Source of the DNA: Natronospira bacteriovora
GTDB taxonomy: Bacteria > Pseudomonadota > Gammaproteobacteria > Natronospirales > Natronospiraceae
Assembly (NCBI RefSeq): GCF_030848495.1
Contig: NZ_JAVDDT010000004.1
Coordinates: 124,001 to 188,000 of the forward strand
Direction of reading: 5' to 3'
DNA length: 64,000 nt
Under the pieces are notes generated by a model. The model had not been told where the DNA came from, did not search any database, and saw nothing but the letters and a program-made list of their open reading frames with translations. Both the position numbers and the translations under genes were made by a program. Shown here in pieces: positions 4,619 to 64,000 of this stretch (positions are counted from its first letter, which is position 1; each line of letters opens with the position of its first letter).

Positions 4619-5725
4619 ATGACTCTACTCGACCAAAACCATCTGGACACGGCCCTGGAGCGAGGCAAGGCGGAACGCCTGGCTTTTGGGGGCATGGCCT
4701 ATGCCCGGCTGACCGACGAGATCCGGGGGGTGCCGAAAGGCAGCGTCGTATTGCCCGATGGGGTGGTCGTCCCGGGCTATCCCTCCATTGCGCGCATCCA
4801 GGCCCTGGACCCCGGCCTGGGCAAGCAGTTTGACGGGCCTTTCTGGGCGGAGGAGAAGATGGATGGATTCAATATCCGCATCTTCGCCCACGAGGGTGAG
4901 GTGCATGCATTGTCCCGTGGCGGCTTTGTCTGCCCCTTCGCCACGGATCGCATGCAGGATCTGTTGGATCCGGCCATCTTCGAGGCCCATCCGAATCTGA
5001 TTCTCTGCGCCGAACTGGTCGGACCGGACAATCCCTATCTGGAAGGCCACTCACCCCAGGTCCAGGAAGACGTGGACCTGTTCATCTTCGACATGATGGA
5101 GCAGAACCGCGAGGGCTTTCTCAGCCAGGAAGCGCGCATGCGCTACCTGCGGGAATTCAATCTGCCCCATGCCGAGATCTTCGGCCGCTTCGGCCCCGAC
5201 GACATCAATAAACTGGGCGAGCTGATCCTGAAGCTGGACGAGGAGGGCAAGGAGGGCCTCGTCCTGAAACCGGAAGACCAGAGCCAGCGGGCCAAGTATG
5301 TCACCGGGCGCTCCAACACCTATGATTTCAGCGTGACGGGCGAAGGCCTTCTCGATCTGCCACCCGAATATTTCACGAACCGCCTGATGCGGATGGGCCT
5401 GTTCATGGCCGAGCATGGGCAGCAGCAGGATCACGAACGCCTGAGTGAACTGGGCCACGCCCTGATGCAGGGCCTGTTCCGCGCCATCGAGATCTCAAAG
5501 GACCACAACCGGGTGGGCTCCCCCTTCCGCTGCCGCTTCAATCAGCGCGAAAACGCCTATCGTTTCATCCAGCACATCGAGGATACCGGCGGACAGCGGG
5601 TCAAGGTCTACGACAAGATGCCCCGCCAGGAAGGGGATTACTGGGTGCTGGAATTCGAACGCGTGCACCAGCGCATGACGGGTTTCCTGAATCAGGCCTT
5701 ACAGGGTGGGCGGCAATTCGATTGA
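4619..5725 (+). CDS. ATP-dependent RNA ligase, Rnl3 (Pab1020/MthRnl) type
   Basis: This 368-residue protein belongs to the nucleotidyltransferase superfamily that adenylates a lysine and seals 5'-phosphate/3'-OH RNA ends. The AMP-accepting motif EEKMDGFNIRI (about residue 82; KxDG) and motif IV/V-like segments (LFIFDMME; EGLVLKPE) are present. The archaeal Rnl3 family (TIGR01209) has the same length and the KxDG(F/Y)N motif. I chose ATG 4619 because upstream codons lie inside an intergenic repeat arm. The HARP gene 180 bp downstream on the other strand is the known genomic companion of this family ('RNA ligase partner'). The cellular substrate is unknown. Confidence 0.88.
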   Translation: MTLLDQNHLDTALERGKAERLAFGGMAYARLTDEIRGVPKGSVVLPDGVVVPGYPSIARIQALDPGLGKQFDGPFWAEEKMDGFNIRIFAHEGEVHALSRGGFVCPFATDRMQDLLDPAIFEAHPNLILCAELVGPDNPYLEGHSPQVQEDVDLFIFDMMEQNREGFLSQEARMRYLREFNLPHAEIFGRFGPDDINKLGELILKLDEEGKEGLVLKPEDQSQRAKYVTGRSNTYDFSVTGEGLLDLPPEYFTNRLMRMGLFMAEHGQQQDHERLSELGHALMQGLFRAIEISKDHNRVGSPFRCRFNQRENAYRFIQHIEDTGGQRVKVYDKMPRQEGDYWVLEFERVHQRMTGFLNQALQGGRQFD

Positions 5726-5738
5726 GGCGTTAAAACAA

Positions 5739-5889
5739 GGGAACCACCGAAAACGCCGAACACACCGAAAAAGAGAAAGAAGAAAGTAGCATAGCGTCTG
5801 CGAGGTTTAATGATCTGTGCTGTGATTCAAGGTCGTGCTTTAGGAAAAAACCCTGTTTTTCCGTAAATTCGGCGCCTTCGGTGGTTCCC
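5739..5889. repeat. Inverted repeat with CACCGAA/CGCCGAA units
   Basis: The left arm (5739-5773) reads GGGAACCACCGAAAACGCCG followed by further CCGAA units. The right arm (about 5856-5889) is the approximate reverse complement and ends CCTTCGGTGGTTCCC. The element fills the convergent gap between the RNA ligase and HARP. It might also serve as a bidirectional terminator, but there is no clear T tract. Confidence 0.75.
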
Positions 5890-5908
5890 GTCTTTTTCAT
5901 GCCATCGA

Positions 5909-6487
5909 TCAGCCCGCCCCCAGGTTCTCCATGATGCGGCGCAGGTATTCGGGGGTAACGAGCTTCACGCCGACCCGGTTGGCGAACTTGCGCATGCCCT
6001 GATCGGCGCTGGCCAGTTCCGCGTCCAGTTCCATGGCCAGCAGCACCACGTCCACGTCTTCCCGTGAATCCAGCAGGCCCTTGCGCATGGCGCTGCGGAA
6101 GTTTTCCCGCAATTCGGTGATGATCTCGGGCTTCATGGTCGAGAGCGCACCGGCACGCTTGGTGTGTTCCTCGGCGATGCGCAGACCCCGGTCGATGCGT
6201 TCACGCACTTCATTGATGAACTCATAGAGCACATCCGAGGGAATGGTGAGCTCGAAGCGGCGGGGAGAGCGGACCCAGACTTCCGTTTCGAAGTCCGCGG
6301 CCAGCTCCGGCGGCAGATCCCGCACCCGCATGAACTCCTCATACACCGACAGGGGCATGTAGAACTCCGTCGGCGTATTGCGCGCCAGTTCCAGGAAAAC
6401 CCGGATACATTCCATGGGATCCGCGTGGAACTGAGCCATGGTGGTGGGGTTGGTAAAGATGCTGGTATCCAGCACAAAACGGCGCAT
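5909..6487 (-). CDS. Protein-only RNase P, HARP family (PIN domain; 'RNA ligase partner')
   Basis: This 192-residue single-domain protein matches the HARP/UPF0278 family, whose Aquifex member is an RNA-free RNase P trimming tRNA 5' leaders. It begins MRRFVLDTSIF, with the PIN-domain aspartate D7. A long helical region (about 85-135) follows, then the C-terminal acidic cluster REDVDVV (D144, D146) and SADQGMRKF (D162). Length equals that of the Aquifex enzyme. It converges with the Rnl3 ligase gene, a pairing recorded for this family. HARPs in gammaproteobacteria coexist with ordinary RNA-based RNase P, so its role here may be accessory. Confidence 0.87.
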   Translation of the reverse strand: MRRFVLDTSIFTNPTTMAQFHADPMECIRVFLELARNTPTEFYMPLSVYEEFMRVRDLPPELAADFETEVWVRSPRRFELTIPSDVLYEFINEVRERIDRGLRIAEEHTKRAGALSTMKPEIITELRENFRSAMRKGLLDSREDVDVVLLAMELDAELASADQGMRKFANRVGVKLVTPEYLRRIMENLGAG

Positions 6488-6550
6488 GCTCGCACCTCGT
6501 CAACAATGACCTGCCCCAATCATGGGTGCTGACACCGGGTAGGTCAATTC

Positions 6551-6815
6551 AAATGCGCCGCGAAATGGACGCAAAATGAACGCGAAATTGAAATAGCCAC
6601 AGATGAACACAGATGCACACAGATGAAGTTCGGCTGAGTGCAACGCCTGAGGTATTGCACTGTTTATTGCGGGCCAGAATGGCCTTCAAGCGCAACGACA
6701 AGCACCTCAACGCCAATTAGGCACCAACCCAAGCAATCTGTGTCCATCCGTGTTCATCTGTGGCTTAAATTGCTTTTCATTTCGCGTGCATTTTGCGTCC
6801 ATTTCGCGGTGCTTT
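6551..6815. repeat. ACACAGATG/CGCGAAATGA inverted-repeat element, copy 3
   Basis: The left arm (6551-6626) has GCGCCGCGAAATGGACGC units and then CCACAGATGAACACAGATG. The right arm (6736-6815) is the reverse complement, in mirrored order. The right arm ends 9 bp from the stop codon of the amidohydrolase, so it could sit in that gene's mRNA 3' end. Copies 2 and 3 bracket the RNA ligase/HARP pair. No gene is seen between 6488 and 6823. Confidence 0.85.
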
Positions 6816-6823
6816 TACCTCAT

Positions 6824-8503
6824 TCAGCGGCCGTCGAAGAGAACTTCGCCGCCGACGATGGTCATGACCACGTCGGTGTCGAGGATGTCTTTCTCGTCGA
6901 TGCTCATGAGATCCCGGGCGAAGACGGTGAGGTCGGCGTACTTGCCGGGTTCGATGCTGCCGCGAACGTCTTCCTCGAAGGCGGCCATTGCCGGCCAGAG
7001 GGTGAACATCTTCAGGGCCTCTTCCCGGCTGACGGCCTGTTCCGGGTACCAGTGATCGCCCTGGTAGCCGTCCAGGTCCCGGCGGCTGACGGCCGCGTAG
7101 AACTCGATGCGGGGGTCACCCATCTCCACGGGCGCGTCCGAGCCACCGGCAAGAGGCACACCGCTGTCGATCAGGTCACGCCAGGCATAGGCCGTGCGCA
7201 GGCGTTCAGGGCCGACCCGACGATGGGCGTAATGCAGATCGCCAATGGCGTGGGAGGGCTGCATGGAGGGAATCACGCCCAGCTCGACGAAGCGGGGGAG
7301 ATCGTCCGGGTGCAGCACCTGGGCATGCTCGATGCGCCAGCGCGGCTCCGCCACGCCCCGTTCTTCGGCCGGGACCCTGTCGAAGACTTCTTCATAGAGA
7401 TCGAGGGCAAAACGATTGCCCCGGTCGCCGATGGCATGGGTCCAGACCTGGACACCATTGCGCAGGGCCATTTCCAGCAGCTCGATCACGTCCTCGCGCT
7501 GGAACTGCAGATAGCCGCGGCCTTCGCGGTCCTCGTAGTCCTTGAGCAGGGCAGCGCCGCCGGAGCCCAGGGCACCATCGGCGGCGAGCTTGATGCCGCG
7601 CACACTGTAGCGGCCTTCATACAGGCCACTGAAGCCCCCTTCATTCACCAGCCGTTCGGCACCCGCCCCTGGGCCCCGCAGGGCCTGGTAGACCCGCAGG
7701 CGAATCTGACCCTCGGCGAAGAGATCACGCAGGGTATGCAGTTCCTCGTAATCACCGCTGGCGATGTGTACCTGGGTCCAGCCCATCTCCAGGCTGCGCT
7801 GGGCGCCAAGTACCAGGCGTTCGGCCAGGCTGGCATCCGGTTCCGGTACGTGCTGGGCCACCAGCCACTGGGCCCGGCCGAGCAGCATGCCGCTGGGTTC
7901 GCCCTTGTCATCACGGAGGATGTCGCCGCCATCGGGAACCGGGGTATCGTGGTCCACTCCGGCAATTTCCAGGGCAAGGGAGTTGGCCACGCTGCCATGG
8001 CCGTCCGCCCGCGTCAGCCAGACCGGGTTGTTCGGGGCGATGGCGTCCAGGTCCTCGCGGGTGGGAAAGGCGGGCGGCGTCCAGTGTGTTTCGAGCCACC
8101 CGCGACCCACCACCCAGTCGCCCACATCGCTTTCCGCCACGCGGCCTTCGACCGCATCCAGAAAGGCATCGAGGGAGTCAATGCCGGCCAGGTCCAGACC
8201 CAGTTCACGCTCGCCGATGCCGGCCAGGTGGACATGGGAATCCGCCATGCCGGGAAACACCGTGGCCCCCTCCAGGTCGATTTCGACGGTGTCCTCGCCG
8301 ATGAAGTGGCTCAGGGCTTCACGGCTGCCCACCGCCAGGATGCGATCACCGCGGATCGCGACCGCGGTGGCATGGGGCTTGTTCTCGTCCAGGGTATGGA
8401 TATTGGCATTGTGCAGCAGCTTGTCCGCTGCCGGCTCGGGGCGACCACAGGCCACCAGCAGGACGGCCAGCAGCAGGGAAACAGTCAGCAGAGCACGGTG
8501 CAT
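6824..8503 (-). CDS. Amidohydrolase family lipoprotein (YtcJ-like)
   Basis: This 559-residue protein is a metal-dependent amidohydrolase of the Amidohydro_3/YtcJ type. It has a lipoprotein signal peptide (LLLAVLLVACG, lipidated Cys about 20). Metal-site motifs are HVHLAG (about 90), WTHAIGDRGN (about 355), RIEHAQVL (about 395) and GGSDAPVE (about 460). The substrate cannot be told from sequence; relatives act on N-acyl amino acids or cyclic amides. It is divergent from threonine synthase, and no operon partner is seen. Confidence 0.85.
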   Translation of the reverse strand: MHRALLTVSLLLAVLLVACGRPEPAADKLLHNANIHTLDENKPHATAVAIRGDRILAVGSREALSHFIGEDTVEIDLEGATVFPGMADSHVHLAGIGERELGLDLAGIDSLDAFLDAVEGRVAESDVGDWVVGRGWLETHWTPPAFPTREDLDAIAPNNPVWLTRADGHGSVANSLALEIAGVDHDTPVPDGGDILRDDKGEPSGMLLGRAQWLVAQHVPEPDASLAERLVLGAQRSLEMGWTQVHIASGDYEELHTLRDLFAEGQIRLRVYQALRGPGAGAERLVNEGGFSGLYEGRYSVRGIKLAADGALGSGGAALLKDYEDREGRGYLQFQREDVIELLEMALRNGVQVWTHAIGDRGNRFALDLYEEVFDRVPAEERGVAEPRWRIEHAQVLHPDDLPRFVELGVIPSMQPSHAIGDLHYAHRRVGPERLRTAYAWRDLIDSGVPLAGGSDAPVEMGDPRIEFYAAVSRRDLDGYQGDHWYPEQAVSREEALKMFTLWPAMAAFEEDVRGSIEPGKYADLTVFARDLMSIDEKDILDTDVVMTIVGGEVLFDGR

Positions 8504-8645
8504 CAGGAACCTCCTCGGGCAATACGGATCACCCCAGTGTGCCGAATCCGGTCCCCCGCGTCATCCGCTTCAGAAGCCGACAGGCGGGATGAGCAAGGCG
8601 GGCTTCTGGGGTAAGCTTGCCGCCACCTTGAATCGGGGAGCTCCC

Positions 8646-9818
8646 ATGAGTGACAGCCAGCTCAGTCATTATGAATGTGGCCACTGTGCGGCGACGGCCG
8701 GCATGGATGAACTCATCGCCACCTGCCCGGCCTGCGGCGGGCCTCTGCTTGCCCGTTACGACCTGCAGGGTGCCCGGGCCGATCGCATCCCGGCGCCCGG
8801 GCGTGGCATCTGGCGCTGGTCGGGCCTGCTGCCGGTCCCCGAGGCAGGCCGGATTGAGCTGGGCACCGGGGATACCCCTCTGCTGCCCACCACCATCGGT
8901 GCCTGGCTGGGCACCGGTGCCACCTGGATCAAGGACGAAGCGGCCAATCCCACGGCGAGTTTCAAGGCTCGCGGCATGGCCGTGGCCATTGGCCGCGCTC
9001 GGGCCCTGGGCGCCCGCAGCCTGGTGGTGCCCAGCGCCGGCAACGCCGCCTGTGCGGCGGCGGCCTATGCGGCGGCGGCCGGCCTTCCGCTGACCGTCTT
9101 CATGCCGGCCGATGTGCCGGACAGCTTCCGGATCGAAGCCCGCGCCTACGCCGCGCGGGTCGAGCTGGTGGATGGCCTCATCGATGAGTGCGGACGCCGT
9201 GCCCAGGCCATGGCCGAGCGCGACGGCAGCTTCAATCTCGCCACCTTCCGTGAACCCGGCCGGGTGGAAGGCAAGAAGACCATGGGTTTCGAGATCGCCG
9301 AGCAGATGGGCTGGCGCCTGCCGGAGGTGCTCATCTACCCCACCGGGGGCGGCACCGGCATCGTCGCCCTGTGGAAGGCCTTCGAGGAGCTCGAAGCGCT
9401 CGGACTGATCGGCCCCGAGCGCCCGCGTCTGGTCATGGTTCAGGCCGAGACCTGCGCCCCCCTGGTGCGTGCCTTCGAAGCCGGCAACACCCAGGCCGAA
9501 CCCTGGGAAAACGGCGCCACCGTCGCCGACGGCCTGCGGGTGCCCAAAAGCTTCGGTGATCGCCTGGTGCTGGGAGCCCTGCGCCGCAGCCGTGGCCGCG
9601 CCGTCACCGTCAGCGACGGCCAGATGCTGGAATACGCCCGCATCATGGCGTCGAAAACCGGCATCTTCCCATGCCCCGAAGGCGCCGCCTGCCTCGCCGC
9701 CCAGGTGAAACTCGCCAGGGAAGGCTGGATCGGCCCCGAGGATCGGGTGGTTCTGTTCAATACGGGATCGGCGCTGAAGTATCTCCACCTCTGGCCCAAC
9801 TCCACGCATCCGGATTGA
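8646..9818 (+). CDS. thrC: Threonine synthase
   Basis: This 390-residue PLP enzyme should convert O-phosphohomoserine to threonine. The N-terminus holds a zinc-ribbon-like pair (CGHC...CPAC, about 13-32), common in the plant/bacterial type II-like group. The PLP lysine lies in NPTASFKARGM (about 103), the phosphate loop is YPTGGGTGIVAL, and the C-terminal FNTGSALKYL is typical. The start ATG 8646 follows GGGAGCTCCC; the upstream open frame is antisense to the amidohydrolase and is not coding. A related threonine/diaminopropionate-type lyase is the only plausible alternative. Confidence 0.88.
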   Translation: MSDSQLSHYECGHCAATAGMDELIATCPACGGPLLARYDLQGARADRIPAPGRGIWRWSGLLPVPEAGRIELGTGDTPLLPTTIGAWLGTGATWIKDEAANPTASFKARGMAVAIGRARALGARSLVVPSAGNAACAAAAYAAAAGLPLTVFMPADVPDSFRIEARAYAARVELVDGLIDECGRRAQAMAERDGSFNLATFREPGRVEGKKTMGFEIAEQMGWRLPEVLIYPTGGGTGIVALWKAFEELEALGLIGPERPRLVMVQAETCAPLVRAFEAGNTQAEPWENGATVADGLRVPKSFGDRLVLGALRRSRGRAVTVSDGQMLEYARIMASKTGIFPCPEGAACLAAQVKLAREGWIGPEDRVVLFNTGSALKYLHLWPNSTHPD

Positions 9819-53872: not shown

Positions 53873-55166
53873 CTAGGCCGCCGTCGCGCTCTCGCCCCGT
53901 TCTAGGCTGCGGTACTGGATGGCTTCACCGATGTGGCCGGCGGCAATGGCTTCGCTGCCGTCCAGGTCGGCCAGGGTGCGGGCCAGGCGCAGGATGCGGT
54001 GATAGGCACGGGCTGACAGGCCCAGGCGATCCATGGCCTGTTCCAGCAGGGCACTGCCGTCCGGATCCGGCAGGCAGTGGGCCTCGATCTGGCGGCTGCC
54101 CAGGGCGGCATTGGGGCGGCCCTGGCGTGCCATCTGAATGCTGCGGGCCGCCATCACCCGCTCGCGCACCGAGCCGCTGCATTCGCCCCGGGGAGCGTTC
54201 GGCCGCAGCAGATCCTTGTCCGGCCGGGGCACCGTGACCTGCAGATCAATCCGGTCCAGCAGGGGCCCGGAAATCTTGTTGCGGTAGCGGCTGACCTGTT
54301 CCTCGGTGCAGCGGCAGGCCTTCTTCGGATCGCCCAGATAGCCACAGGGGCAGGGGTTCATGGCCGCCACCAGCTGAAAACGGGCCGGAAAGGTGGCTCG
54401 CCGCGCGGCCCGCGAGATATGGATCTCCCCGGTCTCGATGGGCTCGCGCAGCACTTCCAGTACCTTGCGGTCGTACTCGGGCAGTTCATCCAGAAAGAGC
54501 ACGCCGTGGTGGGCCAGTGAGATCTCGCCGGGCCGCGGCTGTGAGCCGCCACCCACCAGGGCCACCCCCGAACAGGTGTGATGCGGGCTGCGGAAACGGC
54601 GAACCTTCCAGCGCGCCGGATCCAGGCCTTCCCCGCTCACCGAGGCCACCGCCGCCGCTTCCAGGGCTTCCTCCTCGCTCATGGGCGGCAGGATGCCCGG
54701 CAGGCGCGAGGCCAGCATGCTCTTGCCCGTGCCGGGCGGGCCGATGAAGAGCAGGGAATGCCCCCCGGCCGCGGCCACTTCCAGGGCCCGGCGTGCCTGG
54801 TGCTGTCCGCGCACATCGGCCAGATCCGCCATGTCGCTGCCGGGCCGGATGGACTCGCTCCTGGCCCGGGGCAGGGGCTGGTCCCCGATCAGCGCCTCGG
54901 TGACGGCCAGCAGGGAGGTGGCCGCGCGGGTATCGGTGCCCGAAGCCAGCGCCGCCTCGGCGCCGTTGTCGTCCGGCACGATCAGTTGCTGCCCGGCACG
55001 CCCGGCCGCACAGGCCGCCGGCAGAATGCCCTGCACCGGCCGCAGTTCGCCGGACAGGGACAGTTCGCCGAGAAAGCAGCGACCCTCGATGGCCTCCTCG
55101 GGGATCTCGCCGGCCGCGGCCAGAATCCCCAGGGCGATGGCCAGGTCAAAGCGTGCCCCTTCCTTG
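53873..55166 (-). pseudogene. comM: ComM/YifB Mg-chelatase-like AAA+ gene, split by transposon (3' portion)
   Basis: This is the C-terminal 430 or so codons of comM, the AAA+ helicase that drives branch migration in natural transformation. The frame is continuous from 55166, where codons KEGARFDLA lie, to a stop at 53873. It includes the Walker A loop IGPPGTGKSMLASRLPG, FLDELPEYDRKVLEVLREP and the PCPCGYLGD zinc-like segment. The expected N-terminal 75 or so residues (ending ...LP before KEG) are missing, because the Tn7-like left end starts at 55167. They should lie beyond the other end of the element. Transformation is probably impaired unless another copy exists. Confidence 0.92.
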
Positions 55167-55212
55167 TGTCAAAAACATCGCTTTTTTGGAATACACAACG
55201 ATAAATTGGAAT
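55167..55212 (+). repeat. Transposon left end with repeated TTGGAAT motifs
   Basis: TTGGAAT occurs at 55186-55192 and 55206-55212, exactly 20 bp apart, each preceded by an AAC(A/G)-like tract. This fits transposase (TnsB) binding sites at an element end. From here to tnsA (55370) no gene is seen. A TAGAAT box at 55358-55363 just before the tnsA ATG might be a -10. Confidence 0.65.
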
Positions 55213-55369: not shown

Positions 55370-56119
55370 ATGACGAAGGATCGACTCGCCAAACAGGCCG
55401 TGACACGGGCCCTCTGGGAGAGGGTCGGCAGCCCCGTGCGCTCAATCGGCCCCTCGAAGGTCAGCGTCACTGGGCGGGTGGTTACGGAGAAAAATGATCT
55501 ACCGCAGCCGGTCGAGTCCTCCCTTGAGCAGGATTTCCTGACCCTCCTTGAGGCAAATTCGGATGTTGTTCGCTACAGCGTCCAGCCGCTGACCATGCGC
55601 TGGACGGACCGCACTGGACGGCGCCGGGCCTATACCCCGGATGTCCTGGTGGAATACTGCTCCCGGCCCCCGCGTCTTTTCGAGGTTAAGCCAAGGGTGG
55701 TACTGCGCCGCGACTGGGACGAGCTCCGACCGCGCTTTCGCCAGGCGATGGCCGTCGCCCGGGCTAGCGGCTGGTATTTCAAGATCGTGACCGACAAGGA
55801 GATCCGGACCCCTTACCTCCCCAATGCTCGCTTTCTTCTGCGTTTCCGCCGGCAGCGGATAGATCCGGATCAGACCCAAGGGCTCCGCAGACAGCGCCTC
55901 GTGCGGCTCGGTTTGGCCGAGCTGGGTGAATCGACCCCGAGGGGCGTGCTTGAGACGCTCAGCGGCGACATCCAGGAACAAGCGAGGCTTCTTCCCTGGC
56001 TCTGGAATGCCGTGCTTGAAGGCTTTGTGGAGGCCGACCTGGATCGGCCGCTGACGATGGCCACCCGCATTCGCAGCCTGGAGACCGAGTTCACCCGCCG
56101 GAAACTGGAGGTGTTGTGA
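55370..56119 (+). CDS. tnsA: TnsA-family transposition endonuclease
   Basis: This 249-residue protein should cut the 5' ends of the element, allowing cut-and-paste movement. The restriction-enzyme-like core shows an acidic residue in VESSLEQDF (about 48-53), the aspartate in YTPDVLVEY (D91) and FEVKP (E105, K107). The C-terminal half (about 150-249) is the TnsC/TnsB-contacting helical region. The stop overlaps the tnsB start (GTGA). Confidence 0.9.
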   Translation: MTKDRLAKQAVTRALWERVGSPVRSIGPSKVSVTGRVVTEKNDLPQPVESSLEQDFLTLLEANSDVVRYSVQPLTMRWTDRTGRRRAYTPDVLVEYCSRPPRLFEVKPRVVLRRDWDELRPRFRQAMAVARASGWYFKIVTDKEIRTPYLPNARFLLRFRRQRIDPDQTQGLRRQRLVRLGLAELGESTPRGVLETLSGDIQEQARLLPWLWNAVLEGFVEADLDRPLTMATRIRSLETEFTRRKLEVL

Positions 56120-57975
56120 GTAATCGCGTTGTCCATGTCGCCAAGGGCGCCGTCGTGAACTCCGGTGGTCGCCGCTACTGCATTCGGGGATTCGTCGACA
56201 CGACCCGTGTACGGGTGCTGGATCTGGACTCACAGACCGAAAGCGAGCTTCGAATTGCCGATTTGACGGAATCCACCTGTTTCTCCCCGGGTGCGCCAGA
56301 TCTGGACGAGATGCCCGAGAAGCAGTGGCAAGAGGCCCTGAGGCGCTACGAAGTCATCCGCCCCTTGCTCGATAAGCCGGACCGGACCGCCGCCGATGTC
56401 GCAGAGGTGGCGGATCGGGAGGCTGTTTCGAGCACCACGCTATACGGGTGGATGCAGAAGTTCGCCGAGCACGGCGTGGTCACGGCTCTGTTGCGTCAAC
56501 GACGCAAAGACAGAGGAAGCACCAAACTGGCTGAGAGCGTCGAGGAGGTCATCAAGGGTGTCATCGAAGACTTCCATATGACCAGCCAGCAACGAACGGT
56601 GGAACAGAGCTACCGGGAATTGAAAAGGCGCTGTCGCACCCTGGACCTGCCGATCCCGCACAAAAATACCTACTACGATCGGGTGAAAGCCATACCACTG
56701 GAAGAAGCCTATCGGCAACGCAAAGGCCGGAATGCCGCGCTCAAGTATCGTGCTCGGCGTGGGAAATTTCCGGATGCCGAGTACCCATACTCTGTGCTCC
56801 AAATTGACCACACACAGGTGGATCTCACTGTGGTCGACGAGGAGCTGCGCCGGGCTATCGGGCGGCCCTGGATCACAGTGGCTGTCGATATTTTCAGCCG
56901 CTTGATGGCCGGCTATTACATTTCGCTCGATCCGCCAGGCAGTCTCGGCACGGGTATGTGTCTGGCGAACGCCATCCTGCCGAAAGAGCCATTGCTGGAA
57001 GAGTTCGGGATCGACGCGCAATGGCCATGCCACGGCTTGCCCCGAGTCATCCATGCCGACAATGCCAAGGAATTTCGTGGGAACACCCTTGGCGAGGCTT
57101 GCCGTACCTACGGCATCGACCTCCAGTTCCGAAAGGTCAAAAAGCCGAACTATGGCGGGCATATCGAACGATTGCTCGGCACCTTCATGAAGGAAATTCA
57201 GGCGTTGCCTGGCTCGACCTTCTCCAATCCGAAGGCCAAGGGCGACTACGACACTGACCGCCAATCAGCTCTGACCTTGCGCGAGCTTGAAGAATGGCTC
57301 CTGCACCTAGCTGTGGGCATGTATCACAACAAGGTGCACAGCCAGCTGGAGACCACGCCGCTCAAGAAATACGAGCAAGGGATCCTTGGAACGGACGAGC
57401 AACCGGGCATCGGCTACATCCCGATGGTTCAGGACCCTTTGCGTCTGCGCCTCGACTTCATGCCGATGGAGCGTAAGCCCATTCGATCGAATGGCATCGT
57501 CTGGGACTACATCCACTACCAGGCCGATGTGCTCCACCGCTGGATTGAGGCGCGAGAGCCGAACGATCTGAAGCGGAAGCGCCGGTTCGTGTTCCGCCGG
57601 GACCCCCGGGACATTTCGCGGGTCTATTTCTACGACCCGGATGCCGAGCAGTATTTCGAGATCCCTTATGCCGACACCCGACATCCCCCGATAACCTTGT
57701 GGGAACTGAAGAAAATTCGAGCGACGCTTCGGGAACAGCAGAAGGAGGATATCGACGAAGAGGCTATATTCGACGCTTATCACAACATGAGGAACATAGA
57801 AGAGACGGCGAAGCGCAAGACGCGATCGGCACGGCTGAGCCGAAGCCGGCGGATCCATGGCCAGCAGGCCGCGAAAAAGGCGCGAGAAGCGCCCACTAAG
57901 CCCGAGAAGCCGAAACTGGAAGCGGTGCGCGCTCTCGACGACATCAAGCCCTTCGACGAAGTAGAGGACCTCTAG
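56116..57975 (+). CDS. tnsB: TnsB-family DDE transposase
   Basis: This 619-residue protein breaks and joins the 3' ends. The N-terminus holds winged-helix/HTH regions (about 75-150, with AVSSTTLYGWMQKFAEHG). The RNase H-like core has D231 in QIDHTQVDL, D315 in HADNAKEFRG and E351 in GGHIERLLG, a DD(35)E spacing. The basic C-terminal tail (SARLSRSRRIHGQQAAKKA) ends with a short acidic piece suited to binding TnsC. The start is GTG 56116, coupled to tnsA. Confidence 0.94.
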   Translation: MSNRVVHVAKGAVVNSGGRRYCIRGFVDTTRVRVLDLDSQTESELRIADLTESTCFSPGAPDLDEMPEKQWQEALRRYEVIRPLLDKPDRTAADVAEVADREAVSSTTLYGWMQKFAEHGVVTALLRQRRKDRGSTKLAESVEEVIKGVIEDFHMTSQQRTVEQSYRELKRRCRTLDLPIPHKNTYYDRVKAIPLEEAYRQRKGRNAALKYRARRGKFPDAEYPYSVLQIDHTQVDLTVVDEELRRAIGRPWITVAVDIFSRLMAGYYISLDPPGSLGTGMCLANAILPKEPLLEEFGIDAQWPCHGLPRVIHADNAKEFRGNTLGEACRTYGIDLQFRKVKKPNYGGHIERLLGTFMKEIQALPGSTFSNPKAKGDYDTDRQSALTLRELEEWLLHLAVGMYHNKVHSQLETTPLKKYEQGILGTDEQPGIGYIPMVQDPLRLRLDFMPMERKPIRSNGIVWDYIHYQADVLHRWIEAREPNDLKRKRRFVFRRDPRDISRVYFYDPDAEQYFEIPYADTRHPPITLWELKKIRATLREQQKEDIDEEAIFDAYHNMRNIEETAKRKTRSARLSRSRRIHGQQAAKKAREAPTKPEKPKLEAVRALDDIKPFDEVEDL

Positions 57976-58851
57976 GTGGCTCTGGAGCAGGAGAAGCAAG
58001 TCGAGCAGCTCGCGCTGCGCAAGCGCGAGCTCTTCCGGCCGTTCTGGATCGGTTACCCCAAGGCAAAGGAGATCCTGGGCATTCTTGAAGATCTGCTCCA
58101 CCATCCGCAATCGCACCGCATGCCGAACGCAGCGGTGATCGGCGAGACGAACAACGGCAAGACCATGTTGCTTAACCGGTTCTATGACCGGAACACGCCT
58201 GAGCCCGATCCCACGGCGGAGCAAACTCAGATTCCGATCCTCAAGCTCCAGACGCCGCCCGCACCCGATGAAAGTCGGCTGTACAACTCCATGCTGGAGA
58301 AACTCTACGCGCCAGGCGCTCAGCGTGAGCCGGCGGATTCGAAGCTCTACCGGCTGAAATCACTCCTGTTTAGCCTGGAAACTCGGATGATCATCCTCGA
58401 CGAGTTCCAGCACGCGGTCGCCGGGACTGGCAATCGCCAGCGCCGGTTCTTGAATGCCGTCAAATACCTCGGAAACGAGCTTGAGGTTCCCATCGTGGTA
58501 GCTGGTACGCCGGAGACGCGAAACGCGCTCCAGGCCGACCGGCAGATCGCCAACCGCTTTCAGCCGCTGGACTTGCCCCGCTGGGAGCCGGATGAGCGTT
58601 TTCTGCAGCTGCTCGCGACGATCGAGCCGAAGCTCGGGCTCCGCAAGCCCTCGAAGTTGATCCAACCAGCCCTAGCGGACCGGGTTCACCAGGAGACCGA
58701 CGGGATCATAGGAGAGGTCGTCACATTGCTGCAGCGCCTTGCCGCGCAGGCCATGGAATCCGGTGCCGAGCGGATCGTGCCGGACGATCTCTCGAAGGAT
58801 TCGCTGAAAAAGATCTATTGGCAGCGTCCCGGCCGGCGCGGGCGGCTGTAG
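57976..58851 (+). CDS. tnsC: TnsC/TniB AAA+ transposition regulator
   Basis: This 291-residue ATPase links target selection to the transposase. Walker A is GETNNGKT (about 56-63), Walker B is MIILDEFQHAV (about 138-148), sensor 1 VVAGTPET and an arginine-finger region (ANRFQPL) follow. It starts at GTG 57976 directly after the tnsB stop. Its size is nearer TniB than TnsC of classical Tn7 (about 555 residues). Confidence 0.92.
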   Translation: MALEQEKQVEQLALRKRELFRPFWIGYPKAKEILGILEDLLHHPQSHRMPNAAVIGETNNGKTMLLNRFYDRNTPEPDPTAEQTQIPILKLQTPPAPDESRLYNSMLEKLYAPGAQREPADSKLYRLKSLLFSLETRMIILDEFQHAVAGTGNRQRRFLNAVKYLGNELEVPIVVAGTPETRNALQADRQIANRFQPLDLPRWEPDERFLQLLATIEPKLGLRKPSKLIQPALADRVHQETDGIIGEVVTLLQRLAAQAMESGAERIVPDDLSKDSLKKIYWQRPGRRGRL

Positions 58852-58856
58852 GGGCC

Positions 58857-60008
58857 ATGGACATCGGGCAACGGCTGCTTTTCTTTCGGCCGCGCCCCCA
58901 ACCGAATGAGCTGCTCACCTCTTGGCTTGTACGCCTAGCTTGGGCGAACAGGCAGAAGCTCGAACCCTTCACGAGAGAGCATTTCGGCCGAGATGCGCTC
59001 AAGTGGATGATCGACCTGGACCGCACACCGCCAGTGCGGATGCTTGCGGGACTCAATCGGCTGACCGGGGTGCCTCGCCGGCGGATCTGGGATACGACCC
59101 TGCCGGCATACGAGGGTGTGTTGTTCGAGCGAGCTGCTCGCTCTGGCCAGTTGGCCTGGGTGTTACCCATCGGCAAAACAAGTCGGCTCGCCAAACGGCC
59201 TTTTACCAGCTACTGCCCGATTTGCCTCGCGACGGACGAGGTGCCGTATTTCCGCCGGGAGTGGCGTCTCGCATGGGCTGTGGCGTGCCCCATCCACGGT
59301 TGTCTGATGGTGGATCGTTGCGCTGCGTGCGGGGCGAATGCGGCTTTCCACCAGTGTGACTACGGTCATACCCTCACGCCGCCATTCGACCGATTGCGTG
59401 CTTGCTGGCGTTGTGGCCGACCTCTGGGAAACGGTTTCACCCGATCTTGGGCGCCAGCGGACATGTTGTGGCTCGTTCGTGCCCTTGATCAGGCGCTCAC
59501 GCCCGGTATATCTGCAGTTTCGAATGGAATTCCGTTTCCGATTGGCCATCCGCTTTGCCTATTTGTCGGGCTTCACATCCTTCTGGCTGCGATTTCGTCC
59601 AATGCACGCACCATGCTGCTGCTGGAAGGCATGAGATCGCAGGTCGGATGCCCAAATGTGACGATGCCCGATAAGCACGGTCGGCCATTCGAGGAATGGG
59701 GCATCCAGGACCGGGCAAACCTGATTCTCTTAGCGGGATGGTTGCTGCGTGACTGGCCTGCACGCTTCATCGCATCGTGCCAGGCTGCAGATGTTATGGG
59801 ATCGAGCTTCCGTCGTTATCATTGGAAATCGGAATTGCCGTTTTGGTTTGAAATCGCCCTGAAGGAAGGGGTAGACCGACCCTGGTATCGTGTTACAGCG
59901 GCTGAAGTCGACGCGGCGCGGGCATATCTTCTCCGCCGCTGGCTGAACCCATCTGACCTCGCCCTGCGCACTCTGGTCGGCCATACGGTATCGAAACCAC
60001 GGAAATAG
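58857..60008 (+). CDS. tniQ: TniQ/TnsD-family target selector
   Basis: This 383-residue protein starts MDIGQRLLFFRPRPQPNELL, followed by SWLVRLAWANRQ, the usual TniQ N-terminus. Zinc-binding cysteines and histidines (CPICLA...ACPIHGCLM...CAACG...CWRCG) span about 117-185. The C-terminal 180 residues should read the target. Because the insertion is in comM, this is the candidate comM-specific selector. ATG 58857 follows tnsC by 5 bp. Confidence 0.9.
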   Translation: MDIGQRLLFFRPRPQPNELLTSWLVRLAWANRQKLEPFTREHFGRDALKWMIDLDRTPPVRMLAGLNRLTGVPRRRIWDTTLPAYEGVLFERAARSGQLAWVLPIGKTSRLAKRPFTSYCPICLATDEVPYFRREWRLAWAVACPIHGCLMVDRCAACGANAAFHQCDYGHTLTPPFDRLRACWRCGRPLGNGFTRSWAPADMLWLVRALDQALTPGISAVSNGIPFPIGHPLCLFVGLHILLAAISSNARTMLLLEGMRSQVGCPNVTMPDKHGRPFEEWGIQDRANLILLAGWLLRDWPARFIASCQAADVMGSSFRRYHWKSELPFWFEIALKEGVDRPWYRVTAAEVDAARAYLLRRWLNPSDLALRTLVGHTVSKPRK

Positions 60009-60225: not shown

Positions 60226-60279
60226 TACGACCAGTTTATGTGCTATCCTTAACACGAGCCCATAGTGAAGCCCTCGCAA

Positions 60280-60780
60280 ATGAGCGATCCAGCTTTGTTG
60301 CGCCCACAAGAAGCACAGGCGTTTAGCGGTGTTACACGCGCCCAACTCAGGTATTGGCGCCGGTTTCTGATGCCTTTGCAGAAGAAATCTGGGAATAACC
60401 CCTCGTTTACCTTGGGGGATGTCCTGGCTCTGCGCGTTGTTCGGCGCGCCATTTCAGAATGTGGGTGCGAAGTCCGGTATTTGGCCACCGCTGGCCAGGC
60501 CCTTTTTGCGAAACTAAACGGTCCCAATTGGCCGAGATTAGCGCATTTCCGGCTTTATATTTTCCCAGCAAGTGGGGATGTCTTGTTGGAAAGAGCTAAC
60601 GAATCGACCTGTCATGATTTTGATAAGCCTGCGATTGTTATCGACCTTCGAGAAGATGTGGTTCGTCTTATAGATATTAGGTTGGGTACACAGAGTGACG
60701 AACTGGACTCTTTGCCCGGTGGAATAGAAGAAAAACAAAAATTCGAGAAAGACGGAAAACAGCCCAAAGCTGGCTATTAA
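60280..60780 (+). CDS. MerR-like HTH regulator in transposon cargo
   Basis: This encodes 166 residues from ATG 60280 (MSDPALLRPQEAQ); a GTG 15 bp upstream is the alternative. Residues about 6-70 give a MerR-type winged helix (PQEAQAFSGVTRAQLRYWRR...NPSFTLGDVLALRVVRRAI). The rest is unlike metal-sensing MerR tails and includes FRLYIFPASGDVLLERAN and a charged end. Codons are more A/T-rich than in the core genome. It precedes the methyltransferase by 22 bp and likely controls or accompanies it. Confidence 0.7.
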   Translation: MSDPALLRPQEAQAFSGVTRAQLRYWRRFLMPLQKKSGNNPSFTLGDVLALRVVRRAISECGCEVRYLATAGQALFAKLNGPNWPRLAHFRLYIFPASGDVLLERANESTCHDFDKPAIVIDLREDVVRLIDIRLGTQSDELDSLPGGIEEKQKFEKDGKQPKAGY

Positions 60781-60802
60781 ATTCTCGAAGGATAATAAGA
60801 CT

Positions 60803-63800
60803 ATGTCTCTACTCGATATAAAGTCTGAACTTCAGAGCTATGGCGCGCCGGAGTCCGCCGTACGCCTTCTCAGTGAACCGTCATACGATTCGTTGCAGTA
60901 TCGAGATCTGTTCTCAGGACACTCTGGAACAGAAGATCTGCCGTTACGGCCTAGCGCCGTAATTGAGGCAGGCGGGAGCCCCCTGGTTTTTGTTGTTAGA
61001 GAGCCCCTCGCCGTCGGAATTGGAAATCATGGGAAGATCGCGTTGGAGCGGCTCAAGAGTGTCCTCGCTTTTCGCGGTGACAATGCGTACATGGCAGTGC
61101 TTAAACCAGGGCAGTTGGATCTATATTCCGTAGATCGACTTAGAACCCTTTCGTTACGCGAAAGCATACAGGCGGGAACGCCGAAAGCCGAAAGCTATAT
61201 TCTCGATCTGGCGCAAGGTGGTCTAGAGGACAAGGGCGACCATAAGCGACGATCAGCGGATCGCCACTCAATTCACGAGTTGATGTTCAATGTGCTGACG
61301 CACGCTACCAAGGAGCTCTTGAGCTCAGAGGGTTTGCGAGATAACAGGGACCAAGTGATATCCCTTGTAGGACGCGCATTGTTTACGCGATTCCTAATCG
61401 ATCGAGATATATTAAATGAAAAAACGTTTCCATGGCTGTTTCGACAGAATCAAGGGGATGCGACGAGGTGCTTCTCAAACGCGCGGAATGCCGCCAAAAC
61501 TTGTGCGTGGCTAGATAGGACATTCAACGGCAACCTGCTGCCACTTTGTGAAGGTAAATATAATAAGTTCTTTGGTGCATTTGAAAACGATGGCTCACAT
61601 CCTATATTCCATGAGCTAACAAAGATCGCTGCACGCGCCGAGGCTAGTGGTCAGCAGCTTTTGGATTGGGGCGATATCAATTTTGCGCATGTTCCTGTGG
61701 GCCTGCTTAGCCAAGTGTACGAAGATTACAGTCACCGGTTCTATGGAGACAAAGCTAAAGCGGATAGCGTTCATTACACGCCAAGCTCCGTTGCCAAATA
61801 TGTAATAGATGAAGCATTTGAAGCGTTGACGACGAGTTCTCCGGCGGATGCAAAAGTTCTTGACCCGGCAGCAGGTGCTGGCGTGTTTTTGACACTAGCC
61901 TTTCAGCGATTGATCGCCGAGAATTGGCGAGAAGCTGGCTGCCGACCGACAACTGCAGAGATAAGGCGCATACTTCATGAACAAATCTTCGGGTTTGACA
62001 AAAATGGATCTGCGTTACGACTTTCCGCTCTATCGCTGTATTTAACTGCAATAGAGTTGGATCCAGAACCAGGTCCGCCGGAAGATCTGATCTTCCCGAA
62101 TCTTTTAGGCGAAAATTTACTGACTATAGGCGGTGATGCAGATGACGGCTCTCCCGAAGGGTTGCTCGGAAGTTTGGCGATGCCGATCGATAAAATGCGG
62201 AGTCAATTCGACATCGTCGCGGCAAATCCCCCTTGGACGAGCTGGAAAGGAAAACCAGGAAAGGCTGCAAATCAAAGAGTCGACAAGATAATCAACGGAA
62301 TCATCGAGCGGAGAAGGAGCGTATCTTCGGAAGATGAAATCAAATCGCTATATTCCAATCCGGACTTGGTGCCAGACCTTCCATTTGTATGGCGCTCGAT
62401 GGAGTGGGCGAAACCCGGCGGCGTACTTTCATTTGTTCTGCACGGTCGATTCCTTTTTAAACAACAGCCAAAACCTGCGGCCGCAAGAGAGGCTATATTC
62501 AATGCAGTATCTGTGAAAGGAATACTTAACGGGTCGGAAATTGTTCACTCTGTCTGGGACGGGATGGGTACACCATTTTGCGTACTTCTCGCCACGAATG
62601 ATCGGCCGAAGCAAGATGAACAATTCTATTATGTCGACCCCGTTCCGAATTCTAGCCCGACAGGCCGAACCCATATTGTCGTGGACTATGAAAATGCAAG
62701 GCCTATTCACAGTAAAACGATAATAAATGAACCAACAATCGCCAAGGTGCTATTCACAGGTACGGATTTCGATGCCTCGGTTATCCATAAATTAGAGTCA
62801 AGGTTGGTTCTTCCGCAAAACTATGCAGGGGCGAACTGGAGCTCAGTTAATAACTCACCCATGGTATGGTCCAGGTTAGGTGATTATTGGACTGAACGCC
62901 TTGGATTGCGACTGAGCCAAGGATATCGCAAGGGGAGTGATAAAGGGCCAGTGCCTCCTGAGCTGCTCCGGTATGCACGGATGTTGGAGAAATCCGATAG
63001 CCCTAAGTACAGAATTAGGCATAGCGACCTTCGCAAGTTTAGCTATGAAGAGCTGGAACGAGCGCGAAAGCCAGCCGGCTATAAACTTCCTTTAGCGATC
63101 CTAGCGGAAGCACCTGGGGATATAGAGGGGGTAGTGAAAGCGCACTGGGCCGGCGGCTCTGGCATGATTGCCTTTAATGAGTCGTACTTTGGCTTTAGTG
63201 GTTATGGCCATGACGATGGAGACGCGTTGACGAAGTATATATTCGTCCTGTCCAATAGCTCGCTCTTCGCTTATTATAATCTAATGACTAGCTCGAGAAT
63301 TGGTGTAGAGCGAAAGGCATTACTCCTCAGGGAGTTCTCGCAGTTTCCGGTTCCTGAGTTGTCCAGTCTTGATCTAAGAGCGCGTGCGAGAATAATCGCG
63401 TTAGCTGACTCCATTTTGAAATATAACCGAATAGATCAACGATCGCTGGATTCATTCGTTTATGAGTTATATGGCATCGACGCATTTGAGGCTCAAGTGG
63501 TTAATGAAGCGCTCGAACTACGCTCGCCATATGCTCGCGCAAAGGAGCGAGCTCAGAAGCCTCCGACATCAAAAGAGCTTAATCAGTTTGCGAAGAACCT
63601 GGAGGAAGGTCTGAACGAATTCGGTGATGATATGGGGGAGAAGTTCAGCGTAAGATTGGTCGAATCTGGTAGTGAGACGTGGAAATTTATTGGTGTCAAG
63701 AGATCCAATGGCGGCCGCACGCGGGAAGAGCCCATTGCAATGCAGTTGCTGAAGGTTATTGCAGAAAACGAAGGCGCAACGCGGGCATTATTACACCAAG

Positions 63801-63928
63801 CAGGTGACCAGATCGTTGTGGCGATGCGGAATCAGTACCAATATTGGACGCCGACTCGGGCTACCATGAACATCCTGGATCTTCTATCGCATTTTTCTAC
63901 GGGTGGAAGGGAAGCCAGTAATGGGTGA
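60803..63928 (+). CDS. Large N6-adenine DNA methyltransferase (Eco57I-like) of a defence system
   Basis: This 1041-residue protein has an N-terminal region (1-about 300) of unclear fold, a SAM-dependent core with motif I VLDPAAGAGVFLTLAF (about 351) and catalytic motif IV AANPPWTSW (about 472), and a long C-terminal target-recognition and helical part. The NPPW form marks amino-methylation of adenine. No convincing PD-(D/E)xK nuclease motif is seen at the N-terminus, so I do not call it a type IIG enzyme. Similar size and place fit DISARM drmMI or BREX PglX-like enzymes, but the partners lie outside. A/T-rich codons point to recent transfer. The next start codon overlaps its stop. Confidence 0.85.
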   Translation: MSLLDIKSELQSYGAPESAVRLLSEPSYDSLQYRDLFSGHSGTEDLPLRPSAVIEAGGSPLVFVVREPLAVGIGNHGKIALERLKSVLAFRGDNAYMAVLKPGQLDLYSVDRLRTLSLRESIQAGTPKAESYILDLAQGGLEDKGDHKRRSADRHSIHELMFNVLTHATKELLSSEGLRDNRDQVISLVGRALFTRFLIDRDILNEKTFPWLFRQNQGDATRCFSNARNAAKTCAWLDRTFNGNLLPLCEGKYNKFFGAFENDGSHPIFHELTKIAARAEASGQQLLDWGDINFAHVPVGLLSQVYEDYSHRFYGDKAKADSVHYTPSSVAKYVIDEAFEALTTSSPADAKVLDPAAGAGVFLTLAFQRLIAENWREAGCRPTTAEIRRILHEQIFGFDKNGSALRLSALSLYLTAIELDPEPGPPEDLIFPNLLGENLLTIGGDADDGSPEGLLGSLAMPIDKMRSQFDIVAANPPWTSWKGKPGKAANQRVDKIINGIIERRRSVSSEDEIKSLYSNPDLVPDLPFVWRSMEWAKPGGVLSFVLHGRFLFKQQPKPAAAREAIFNAVSVKGILNGSEIVHSVWDGMGTPFCVLLATNDRPKQDEQFYYVDPVPNSSPTGRTHIVVDYENARPIHSKTIINEPTIAKVLFTGTDFDASVIHKLESRLVLPQNYAGANWSSVNNSPMVWSRLGDYWTERLGLRLSQGYRKGSDKGPVPPELLRYARMLEKSDSPKYRIRHSDLRKFSYEELERARKPAGYKLPLAILAEAPGDIEGVVKAHWAGGSGMIAFNESYFGFSGYGHDDGDALTKYIFVLSNSSLFAYYNLMTSSRIGVERKALLLREFSQFPVPELSSLDLRARARIIALADSILKYNRIDQRSLDSFVYELYGIDAFEAQVVNEALELRSPYARAKERAQKPPTSKELNQFAKNLEEGLNEFGDDMGEKFSVRLVESGSETWKFIGVKRSNGGRTREEPIAMQLLKVIAENEGATRALLHQAGDQIVVAMRNQYQYWTPTRATMNILDLLSHFSTGGREASNG

Positions 63929-64000
63929 GAGAGCGTCTATGGCCGCCCTGGGGCGGTCGCAGGGCAACGAGTTGCCACTTGAGGATATCGCGAATCCTTT
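63921..64000 (+). CDS. 5' end of a following cargo gene (cut by window)
   Basis: ATG 63921 overlaps the methyltransferase stop by 8 bp and the frame stays open to the edge (MGERASMAALGRSQGNELPL then EDIANP). A second ATG lies at 63939. Tight overlap indicates one operon. Too little is present to identify it; a helicase would be expected if the system is DISARM-like. Confidence 0.55.
   Translation, partial: MGERASMAALGRSQGNELPLEDIANP

What the first reader, a model, noticed from the sequence alone, without database searches (positions are those of the whole stretch)
60280..64000. Incomplete defence-like operon as Tn7-like cargo: MerR-like regulator, giant adenine methyltransferase, overlapping next gene
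Seen: a MerR-type HTH protein 22 bp before a 1041-residue methylase with motifs VLDPAAGAGVF and NPPW, whose stop is overlapped by a new start. Codon use differs sharply from the host. Established: Tn7-like elements often carry defence cargo, and class 1 DISARM and BREX include large adenine methylases. Inference: this is the first part of such a system or an undescribed relative; the lack of an obvious nuclease motif in the methylase implies that effectors lie downstream.
Basis: partly seen in the sequence, partly recalled or inferred. Interest (0 to 1): 0.82.

Follow-up and report, generated by a model that had tools for sequence, protein, structure and literature searches.

The report
Tn7-borne methylase–nuclease restriction module
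A mobile element in this bacterium carries a compact, self-contained DNA-restriction system (a regulator, a large adenine methylase and, just past the end of the window, a small separate DNA-cutting enzyme of a family that the protein libraries searched here do not contain); it is a new version of a well-known kind of anti-phage defence, not a BREX or DISARM system.

Summary
A Tn7-like element (23,228 bp; near-identical 34-bp ends, CCTTG target duplication, comM split in two) carries a MerR-like regulator, a 1041-aa N6-adenine methylase and, overlapping its stop codon, a third gene that ends 650 bp beyond the window. That gene is not part of BREX or DISARM. It encodes a 242-248-aa protein with a PD-(D/E)XK motif whose predicted fold resembles restriction endonucleases. 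No model in Pfam, NCBIfam, PADLOC or PHROGs matches it. In 83 of 83 related loci with DNA downstream, across at least five bacterial phyla, the methylase is followed by this nuclease, and the two co-diverge (Mantel r = 0.95). No further gene is shared, so the system is complete. The methylase N-terminus looks like a type IIG nuclease domain without catalytic residues; the methylase and recognition domains resemble CamA, BrxX and DrdV. Best reading: an uncatalogued type II-like restriction-modification family. DNA cutting, target site and whether the nuclease needs the methylase are untested. The element also carries a second defence candidate (WYL regulator plus helicase PDC-S28). New variant of a known kind; moderate interest.

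The parts
55167..55200 (+). Left terminal inverted repeat of the Tn7-like element; the target duplication CCTTG lies at 55162-55166. The matching right end is at window-equivalent 78361-78394 (C4:202361-202394)
55370..56119 (+). tnsA-like endonuclease (249 aa)
   Evidence: PF08722 E=2.5e-14
56116..57975 (+). tnsB/tniA-like transposase (619 aa)
   Evidence: Mu-transpos_C E=5e-8, rve E=2.5e-6
57976..58851 (+). tnsC/tniB-like ATPase (291 aa)
   Evidence: TniB E=1e-62
58818..60008 (+). tniQ-like target-site protein (396 aa); no tnsF gene follows it
   Evidence: TniQ E=7e-27
60265..60780 (+). MerR-like HTH protein (171 aa), presumed controller of the module
   Evidence: MerR_1 E=6e-4; relatives stand before the same methylase family in other genomes
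60803..63928 (+). N6-adenine DNA methyltransferase, 1041 aa: residues about 1-125 nuclease-like fold without catalytic residues; 155-650 helical region plus MTase; about 650-892 target-recognition region; 905-1041 extra C-terminal domain
63921..64000 (+). Start of the PD-(D/E)XK nuclease gene (ATG 63921 or GTG 63903); it continues outside the window to C4:188650 (window-equivalent 64650), 242-248 aa, D115/E138/K140 in GTG numbering

Best explanation
The three genes form a complete, compact restriction-modification module carried as cargo by a Tn7-like transposon inserted in comM. The large protein reads a DNA sequence with its C-terminal recognition region and methylates an adenine in it, marking host DNA as self. 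The small protein translated from the overlapping gene is the endonuclease; it cuts DNA that lacks the mark, which stops phages and plasmids. The HTH protein times expression so that marking precedes cutting. The methylase descends from, or shares ancestry with, type IIG-like fused enzymes: its N-terminal nuclease-like domain has lost the catalytic residues and may now serve as a docking or pairing surface for the separate nuclease. Shown: gene order, constant pairing, co-divergence, conserved motifs of both enzymes, predicted folds, transposon boundaries. Inferred: DNA cutting, protection by methylation, phage defence, the regulator's role, and physical contact between nuclease and methylase.
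For: (1) The downstream ORF is found in 83 of 83 related loci that have DNA downstream of the methylase, most often with a 4-nt overlap (offset -3 in 44 of 82), and in 5 of 5 more distant members found in an independent genome sample. Every nuclease hit in those 398 genomes lies beside such a methylase. (2) The pairwise identities of methylase and nuclease rise and fall together: Mantel r=0.953 over 69 pairs, largest of 1000 permutations 0.163. (3) Nuclease: E52, D103, E125, K127 invariant in 70 sequences, E-x-K in 81 of 83; AlphaFold pLDDT 93.6; the best structural neighbours are almost all restriction or defence nucleases (OkrAI Z 7.8, BamHI 7.2, McrC 6.0, BglII 5.6). (4) Methylase: catalytic NPPW invariant in 69 of 69; fold pLDDT 86.6, nearest CamA Z 26.5, BrxX 25.4, M.BseCI 24.0, DrdV 23.4, MmeI 22.0. 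(5) N-domain: alpha-beta-beta-alpha-beta-beta order at the place of the DrdV and BpuSI nuclease domains (7lvv_A aligned from model residue 1, 3s1s from 54), but no conserved E-x-K. (6) No third gene is shared by the neighbourhoods (4 of 111 neighbour ORFs at most); neighbours include known defence genes (DarTG, AbiEii, type IIG, type ISP, PD-T7-1). (7) An HTH gene (MerR-like, XRE-like or LexA-like) precedes the methylase in 53 of 86 loci.
Against: No activity has been measured and the target sequence is unknown. The nuclease has no significant sequence or Foldseek match to a solved nuclease, and its VIA-align Z values (below 8) could on their own reflect a common arrangement; the call rests on motif plus fold plus context. 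Loss of the N-terminal active site is judged from sequence and secondary structure; the domain was not folded and searched alone. The methylase belongs to a group (CamA, BrxX, type IIG) whose members often mark one strand only, which would make an independently acting nuclease dangerous to its host; how the system avoids self-cutting is not explained. About a third of loci show no recognisable upstream regulator.
Confidence: 0.82

Rival explanations
1. An orthodox type II pair: methylase and nuclease each recognise the same site independently, as BamHI or BglII do with their methylases, and the N-terminal pseudo-nuclease is a vestige without function. (A sub-model of the best explanation; it differs in how the nuclease finds its site.)
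For: The nuclease is the size of BamHI and its closest structural neighbours are stand-alone type IIP enzymes; its C-terminal third is its most variable part, as a recognition region might be; a single-TRD MTase can read a palindrome (M.BseCI among the nearest folds).
Against: The N-terminal domain and the extra C-terminal domain (905-1041) are retained in the whole family, which suggests a use. No test here separates the two: partial correlation between nuclease and TRD divergence, given the MTase core, is weak (0.19-0.25).
Confidence: 0.4
2. Nuclease recruited by the methylase: the methylase finds the site, the small nuclease docks (perhaps on the pseudo-nuclease or the C-terminal domain) and cuts if the site is unmethylated, as a type IIG or IIB enzyme split over two chains. 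(The other sub-model of the best explanation.)
For: Nearest full-length relatives by fold include type IIG/IIL enzymes whose nuclease is fused at the N-terminus (DrdV, BpuSI, MmeI); the inert N-domain is kept family-wide; genes translationally overlapped and strictly co-inherited.
Confidence: 0.4
3. Incomplete BREX or DISARM locus whose other genes are missing or lie elsewhere.
For: Large adenine methylase, structural likeness to BrxX (Z 25.4).
Against: No PglZ, BrxC, DrmA or DrmB in the element; PglX equivalog cut-offs missed by about tenfold or more; the same pair stands alone in 83 loci with unrelated neighbours.
Confidence: 0.03
4. The nuclease recognises modified rather than unmodified DNA, or is a suicide effector triggered when the methylase is blocked (for example by a phage Ocr-like protein), so the pair is an abortive-infection device rather than classical restriction.
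For: Structural neighbours also include McrC, NucC and Can2; some regulators are LexA-like, hinting at stress-linked control.
Against: Strict pairing with a methylase and shared divergence are the ordinary marks of restriction-modification; no sensor gene is present.
Confidence: 0.1

Closest known systems
Type IIG/IIL restriction enzymes (DrdV, MmeI, BpuSI)
   Same: N-terminal nuclease-like fold, helical linker, gamma-type N6-adenine MTase with NPPW, C-terminal recognition region
   Different: Here the N-domain lacks the E-x-K catalytic motif and a separate nuclease is encoded downstream; extra C-terminal domain 905-1041; best PADLOC type IIG model matches only residues 184-479
BREX PglX/BrxX
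   Same: MTase and recognition fold over residues 156-906 (Z 25.4)
   Different: No other BREX gene; scores far under the equivalog cut-offs; BREX has no dedicated PD-(D/E)XK partner gene overlapping pglX (general knowledge; auxiliary PD-(D/E)XK nucleases do occur near BREX loci, PMC12839542)
CamA and M.BseCI adenine methylases
   Same: Closest solved structures for residues 293-897 (Z 24-26.5)
   Different: They are about 580 aa and lack the N-terminal and C-terminal additions; CamA is an orphan methylase (general knowledge)
Orthodox type II R-M with C-protein control
   Same: HTH gene, methylase and nuclease in one short cluster on mobile DNA
   Different: The nuclease matches no catalogued family; regulators are of at least three unrelated types
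R-M modules as Tn7-like cargo (PMC8649781)
   Same: R-M is the most frequent defence cargo of Tn7-like elements (947 transposons in their Table 1)
   Different: That census used known COGs; this nuclease family is not among the models tested here

Membership tests
[quoted passage not shown]
Tn7-like transposon | 5'-TGT..ACA-3' ends and 5-bp target duplication | tested here: met
Tn6022 group of Tn7-like elements | TnsF target selector next to TniQ | tested here: not met
   tniQ is followed after 256 nt by the MerR gene; none of the larger ORFs scanned in the element has a recombinase match. Definition from PMC10293859
Tn6022 group of Tn7-like elements | Insertion in comM near the Walker B region, and TnsE on the opposite strand at the far end | tested here: inconclusive
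   comM is split, but at codon about 75, far from Walker B at about 297; a 602-aa gene stands at the far end on the opposite strand, but no family match names it TnsE
BREX | PglX equivalog | tested here: not met
   at most 36 bits against cut-offs of 400-900
BREX | PglZ and BrxC/PglY genes | tested here: not met
   main cargo ORFs of the element scanned with Pfam, PADLOC and NCBIfam
DISARM | DrmA helicase, DrmB (DUF1998), DrmC (PLD) | tested here: not met
   the element's only helicase matches PDC-S28, not DrmA
Type IIG restriction enzyme | Nuclease active site and methylase in one chain | tested here: not met
   nuclease-like fold order present, catalytic motif absent in 69 homologues
Type II restriction-modification (separate chains) | Methylase gene paired with its own restriction endonuclease gene | tested here: met
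   pairing in 83 of 83 loci, co-divergence r=0.953; that the partner is an active endonuclease is inferred from motif and fold
Type II restriction-modification (separate chains) | Site-specific cutting of unmethylated DNA, blocked by the cognate methylase | not testable with these tools
   needs biochemistry
PD-(D/E)XK nucleases | Conserved D..E-x-K on the core fold | tested here: met
   invariant D103, E125, K127 and E52 in 70 sequences; predicted fold nearest OkrAI, BamHI, McrC, BglII (Z below 8, so modest by itself)
N6-adenine DNA methyltransferase | Motif I (DPAAGAG) and motif IV (NPPW) | tested here: met

The most novel reading that the evidence does not exclude
A split type IIG architecture: a methylase that keeps an inert nuclease domain as a docking platform for a separate small nuclease of an unrecorded family, so that one recognition domain serves both marking and cutting, under control of interchangeable MerR-, XRE- or LexA-type regulators (the last linking restriction to DNA damage).
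Probability: 0.4. Interest if true: 0.65.

Novelty: new variant of a known kind. Interest (0 to 1): 0.45.

Why it matters
The family spans at least five bacterial phyla and turned up in about 1.5% of a sample of 398 genomes of the same phylum. Standard tools would miss it or mislabel it: the methylase draws weak type IIG or BREX matches and the nuclease is left 'hypothetical'. Recognising the pair adds an effector family to defence annotation, and it gives a natural case to test whether a dead nuclease domain can be re-used as the adaptor between a methylase and a separate cutter.

Tried and rejected
BREX/DISARM membership: rejected on the gene content of the whole element and of 83 relatives. 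Single-chain type IIG: rejected because the N-terminal catalytic residues are missing. Sequence match of the nuclease to a known family: none in Pfam, NCBIfam, PADLOC or PHROGs, none in the PDB by phmmer or profile; Foldseek E-values were not significant, only the second alignment by VIA-align gave restriction enzymes. Test of whether nuclease divergence follows the methylase's recognition region beyond the core: weak, inconclusive; no clean TRD swap was found among close pairs. Sequence relation between the methylase N-domain and the nuclease: none by hhalign. Phage records hold no relative of the methylase; one predicted viral contig does (L092). Literature searches found no description of this pair, but the library holds open-licence papers only and REBASE was not available, so a listing there cannot be excluded. 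The 602-aa gene at the far end could not be proved to be TnsE. The tree places this methylase beside Collimonas on two long branches, flagged as unsafe.
Full report
WHAT IS THERE. The window is bases 124001-188000 of contig C4 (307,151 bp) of a 3.0-Mb genome in 15 contigs. Read on in the genome, that new frame is a complete gene of 242 codons (248 from an alternative GTG at 63903), ending at C4:188650. The three genes have GC 0.49-0.50 and GC3 0.45-0.49, against GC 0.64 for the chromosome.

THE ELEMENT. tnsA, tnsB, tnsC and tniQ lie just upstream. The element ends could be set exactly: 34-bp terminal inverted repeats TGTYAAAAACATCGCTTTTTTGGAATACACAACG, flanked by CCTTG on both sides, at C4:179167 and C4:202394, so the element is 23,228 bp. 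The repeat occurs nowhere else in the genome. comM is split at codon about 75; joining the flanks restores its frame. Further cargo: an NrtR-like Nudix regulator, an SPFH protein and an NAD-kinase-like protein in a row; a secreted-type endonuclease/exonuclease/phosphatase protein with a helix-hairpin-helix tail; a WYL regulator; an 830-aa helicase that matches PADLOC's candidate PDC-S28 at E=1.6e-245; and a 602-aa protein at the far end on the opposite strand, which is where Tn6022-group elements carry TnsE (PMC10293859).

THE DOWNSTREAM GENE. No model in Pfam, NCBIfam, PADLOC or PHROGs matches the 248-aa protein, nor do its 70 relatives give a consistent Pfam or PADLOC match. The alignments show the PD-(D/E)XK signature: invariant E52, D103, E125 and K127 in 70 sequences, E-x-K in 81 of 83. 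VIA-align ranks OkrAI (Z 7.8), BamHI (7.2), McrC (6.0) and BglII (5.6) on top, nearly all the leading rows being restriction or defence nucleases. These Z values are modest and Foldseek alone gave nothing significant, so the assignment rests on motif, fold and context together.

THE PAIR IS CONSERVED AND COMPLETE. A scan of 84,980 species genomes with a four-member methylase profile returned 78 loci in Pseudomonadota, Verrucomicrobiota, Thermodesulfobacteriota, Acidobacteriota and Planctomycetota, with single MAG contigs titled Chloroflexi and Myxococcota; plasmids gave more and IMG/VR one. Of 86 loci with a methylase, three end at or near the end of the held DNA; all the other 83 have the nuclease directly downstream, in 44 of 82 by a 4-nt overlap. 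In an independent draw of 398 genomes of the phylum, each of the two profiles found five genomes including this one; all the resulting loci, down to methylase matches of E about 1e-63, carry both genes side by side, three of them again preceded by a small MerR-like HTH gene. Methylase and nuclease identities correlate at r=0.953 over 69 pairs (largest permuted value 0.163). Neighbour genes are otherwise unrelated from locus to locus, with known defence genes among them. So the unit is two enzymes plus an optional regulator, and the window holds all of it but the nuclease body.

REGULATORS. The gene before the methylase is MerR-like in roughly 24 loci, XRE-like in 25 and LexA-like in a few (LexA DNA-binding and S24 peptidase domains in 4 of 111 neighbour ORFs); 53 of 86 loci have a recognisable one. 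Control by an upstream HTH protein is usual for restriction-modification; that several unrelated types fill the place suggests a replaceable switch. This is inference.

THE METHYLASE. Its predicted structure (pLDDT 86.6) is nearest to CamA (Z 26.5), BrxX (25.4), M.BseCI (24.0), DrdV (23.4) and MmeI (22.0). The catalytic NPPW is invariant in 69 sequences. Residues 1-125 have the strand and helix order of a PD-(D/E)XK domain (strands 52-56 and 59-66, helix 74-90, strands 96-101 and 104-109) and align where DrdV and BpuSI have their nuclease, but where E-x-K is expected the family has V-D/N-A/G without lysine. I read this as an inert nuclease domain; it was not folded alone, so this is likely rather than shown. 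Residues 905-1041 form a further alpha/beta domain outside the CamA-like part, with a conserved R-Y-W near the end; its role is unexplained.

MECHANISM. Most likely the methylase marks an adenine in a specific site and the separate nuclease cuts DNA that lacks the mark. Whether the nuclease reads DNA itself or is brought to it by the methylase is open: nuclease size and BamHI likeness favour the first, the retained inert domain and the type IIG ancestry of the methylase the second. A test by partial correlation of divergence was inconclusive.

KNOWN OR NEW. Restriction-modification is the commonest defence cargo of Tn7-like elements (PMC8649781), so the setting is ordinary. The pair itself is not BREX, DISARM or type IIG by the tests above, and I found no description of it, with the limits that only open-licence papers were searchable and REBASE was not at hand. 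I file it as a new variant of type II-like restriction-modification.

Noticed in passing
L005:9715-12207 (-), C4:196714-199206; WYL gene L002:16318-17232 (-): Second defence candidate in the same element: an 830-aa DEAD/DinG-like helicase with a C-terminal stretch that looks nuclease-like (DLLFVIEAKSGN), matching PADLOC's untested PDC-S28 over its full length (E=1.6e-245), with a WYL-domain regulator nearby.
   Followed up: partly
L002:11263-13806 (+), C4:189262-191805: Three-gene row of NrtR-like Nudix regulator, SPFH/Band 7 protein and NAD-kinase-like protein. On Rhizobium plasmids an SPFH relative also stands beside a gene annotated 'sugar kinase'. A possible NAD-linked conflict system; no PADLOC model matches the SPFH or kinase-like protein.
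   Followed up: partly
window 55162-55167 and C4:202394-202399: The element sits in comM at codon about 75, before Walker A (216), whereas the comM-targeting Tn6022 uses TnsF near the Walker B region; this element has no tnsF gene. It may reach comM by another route, perhaps its 396-aa TniQ.
   Followed up: partly
L005:13507-15315 (-), C4:200506-202314: 602-aa protein of no known family at the far end on the opposite strand, in the position of the remote TnsE of Tn6022-group elements. On a Pseudomonas aeruginosa plasmid (MT732184) a relative lies about 47 kb from a related tniQ.
   Followed up: partly
L002:17625-18587 (+): ORF of 320 aa with weak matches to prokaryotic E2 (ubiquitin-conjugating-like) proteins (E=3e-4) and a cysteine-rich tail; the start of the gene is uncertain.
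   Followed up: no
L021, L024, L033 upstream of the methylase: In Desulfobacteraceae and a Verrucomicrobiaceae genome the regulator of the same R-M pair is LexA-like with an S24 peptidase domain, which would link restriction to DNA damage.
   Followed up: partly
L092 (IMGVR_UViG_3300036444_000018), 4983-8758: The methylase-nuclease pair also lies on a contig classed as viral, nearly identical (93%) to one in an Erythrobacteraceae MAG.
   Followed up: no
L010:11989-14978; L075, L081, L090: Some relatives have the methylase split into two ORFs between the catalytic part and the recognition part (Burkholderia glumae plasmid, several MAGs): either frameshifts or a natural M/S-like split.
   Followed up: no
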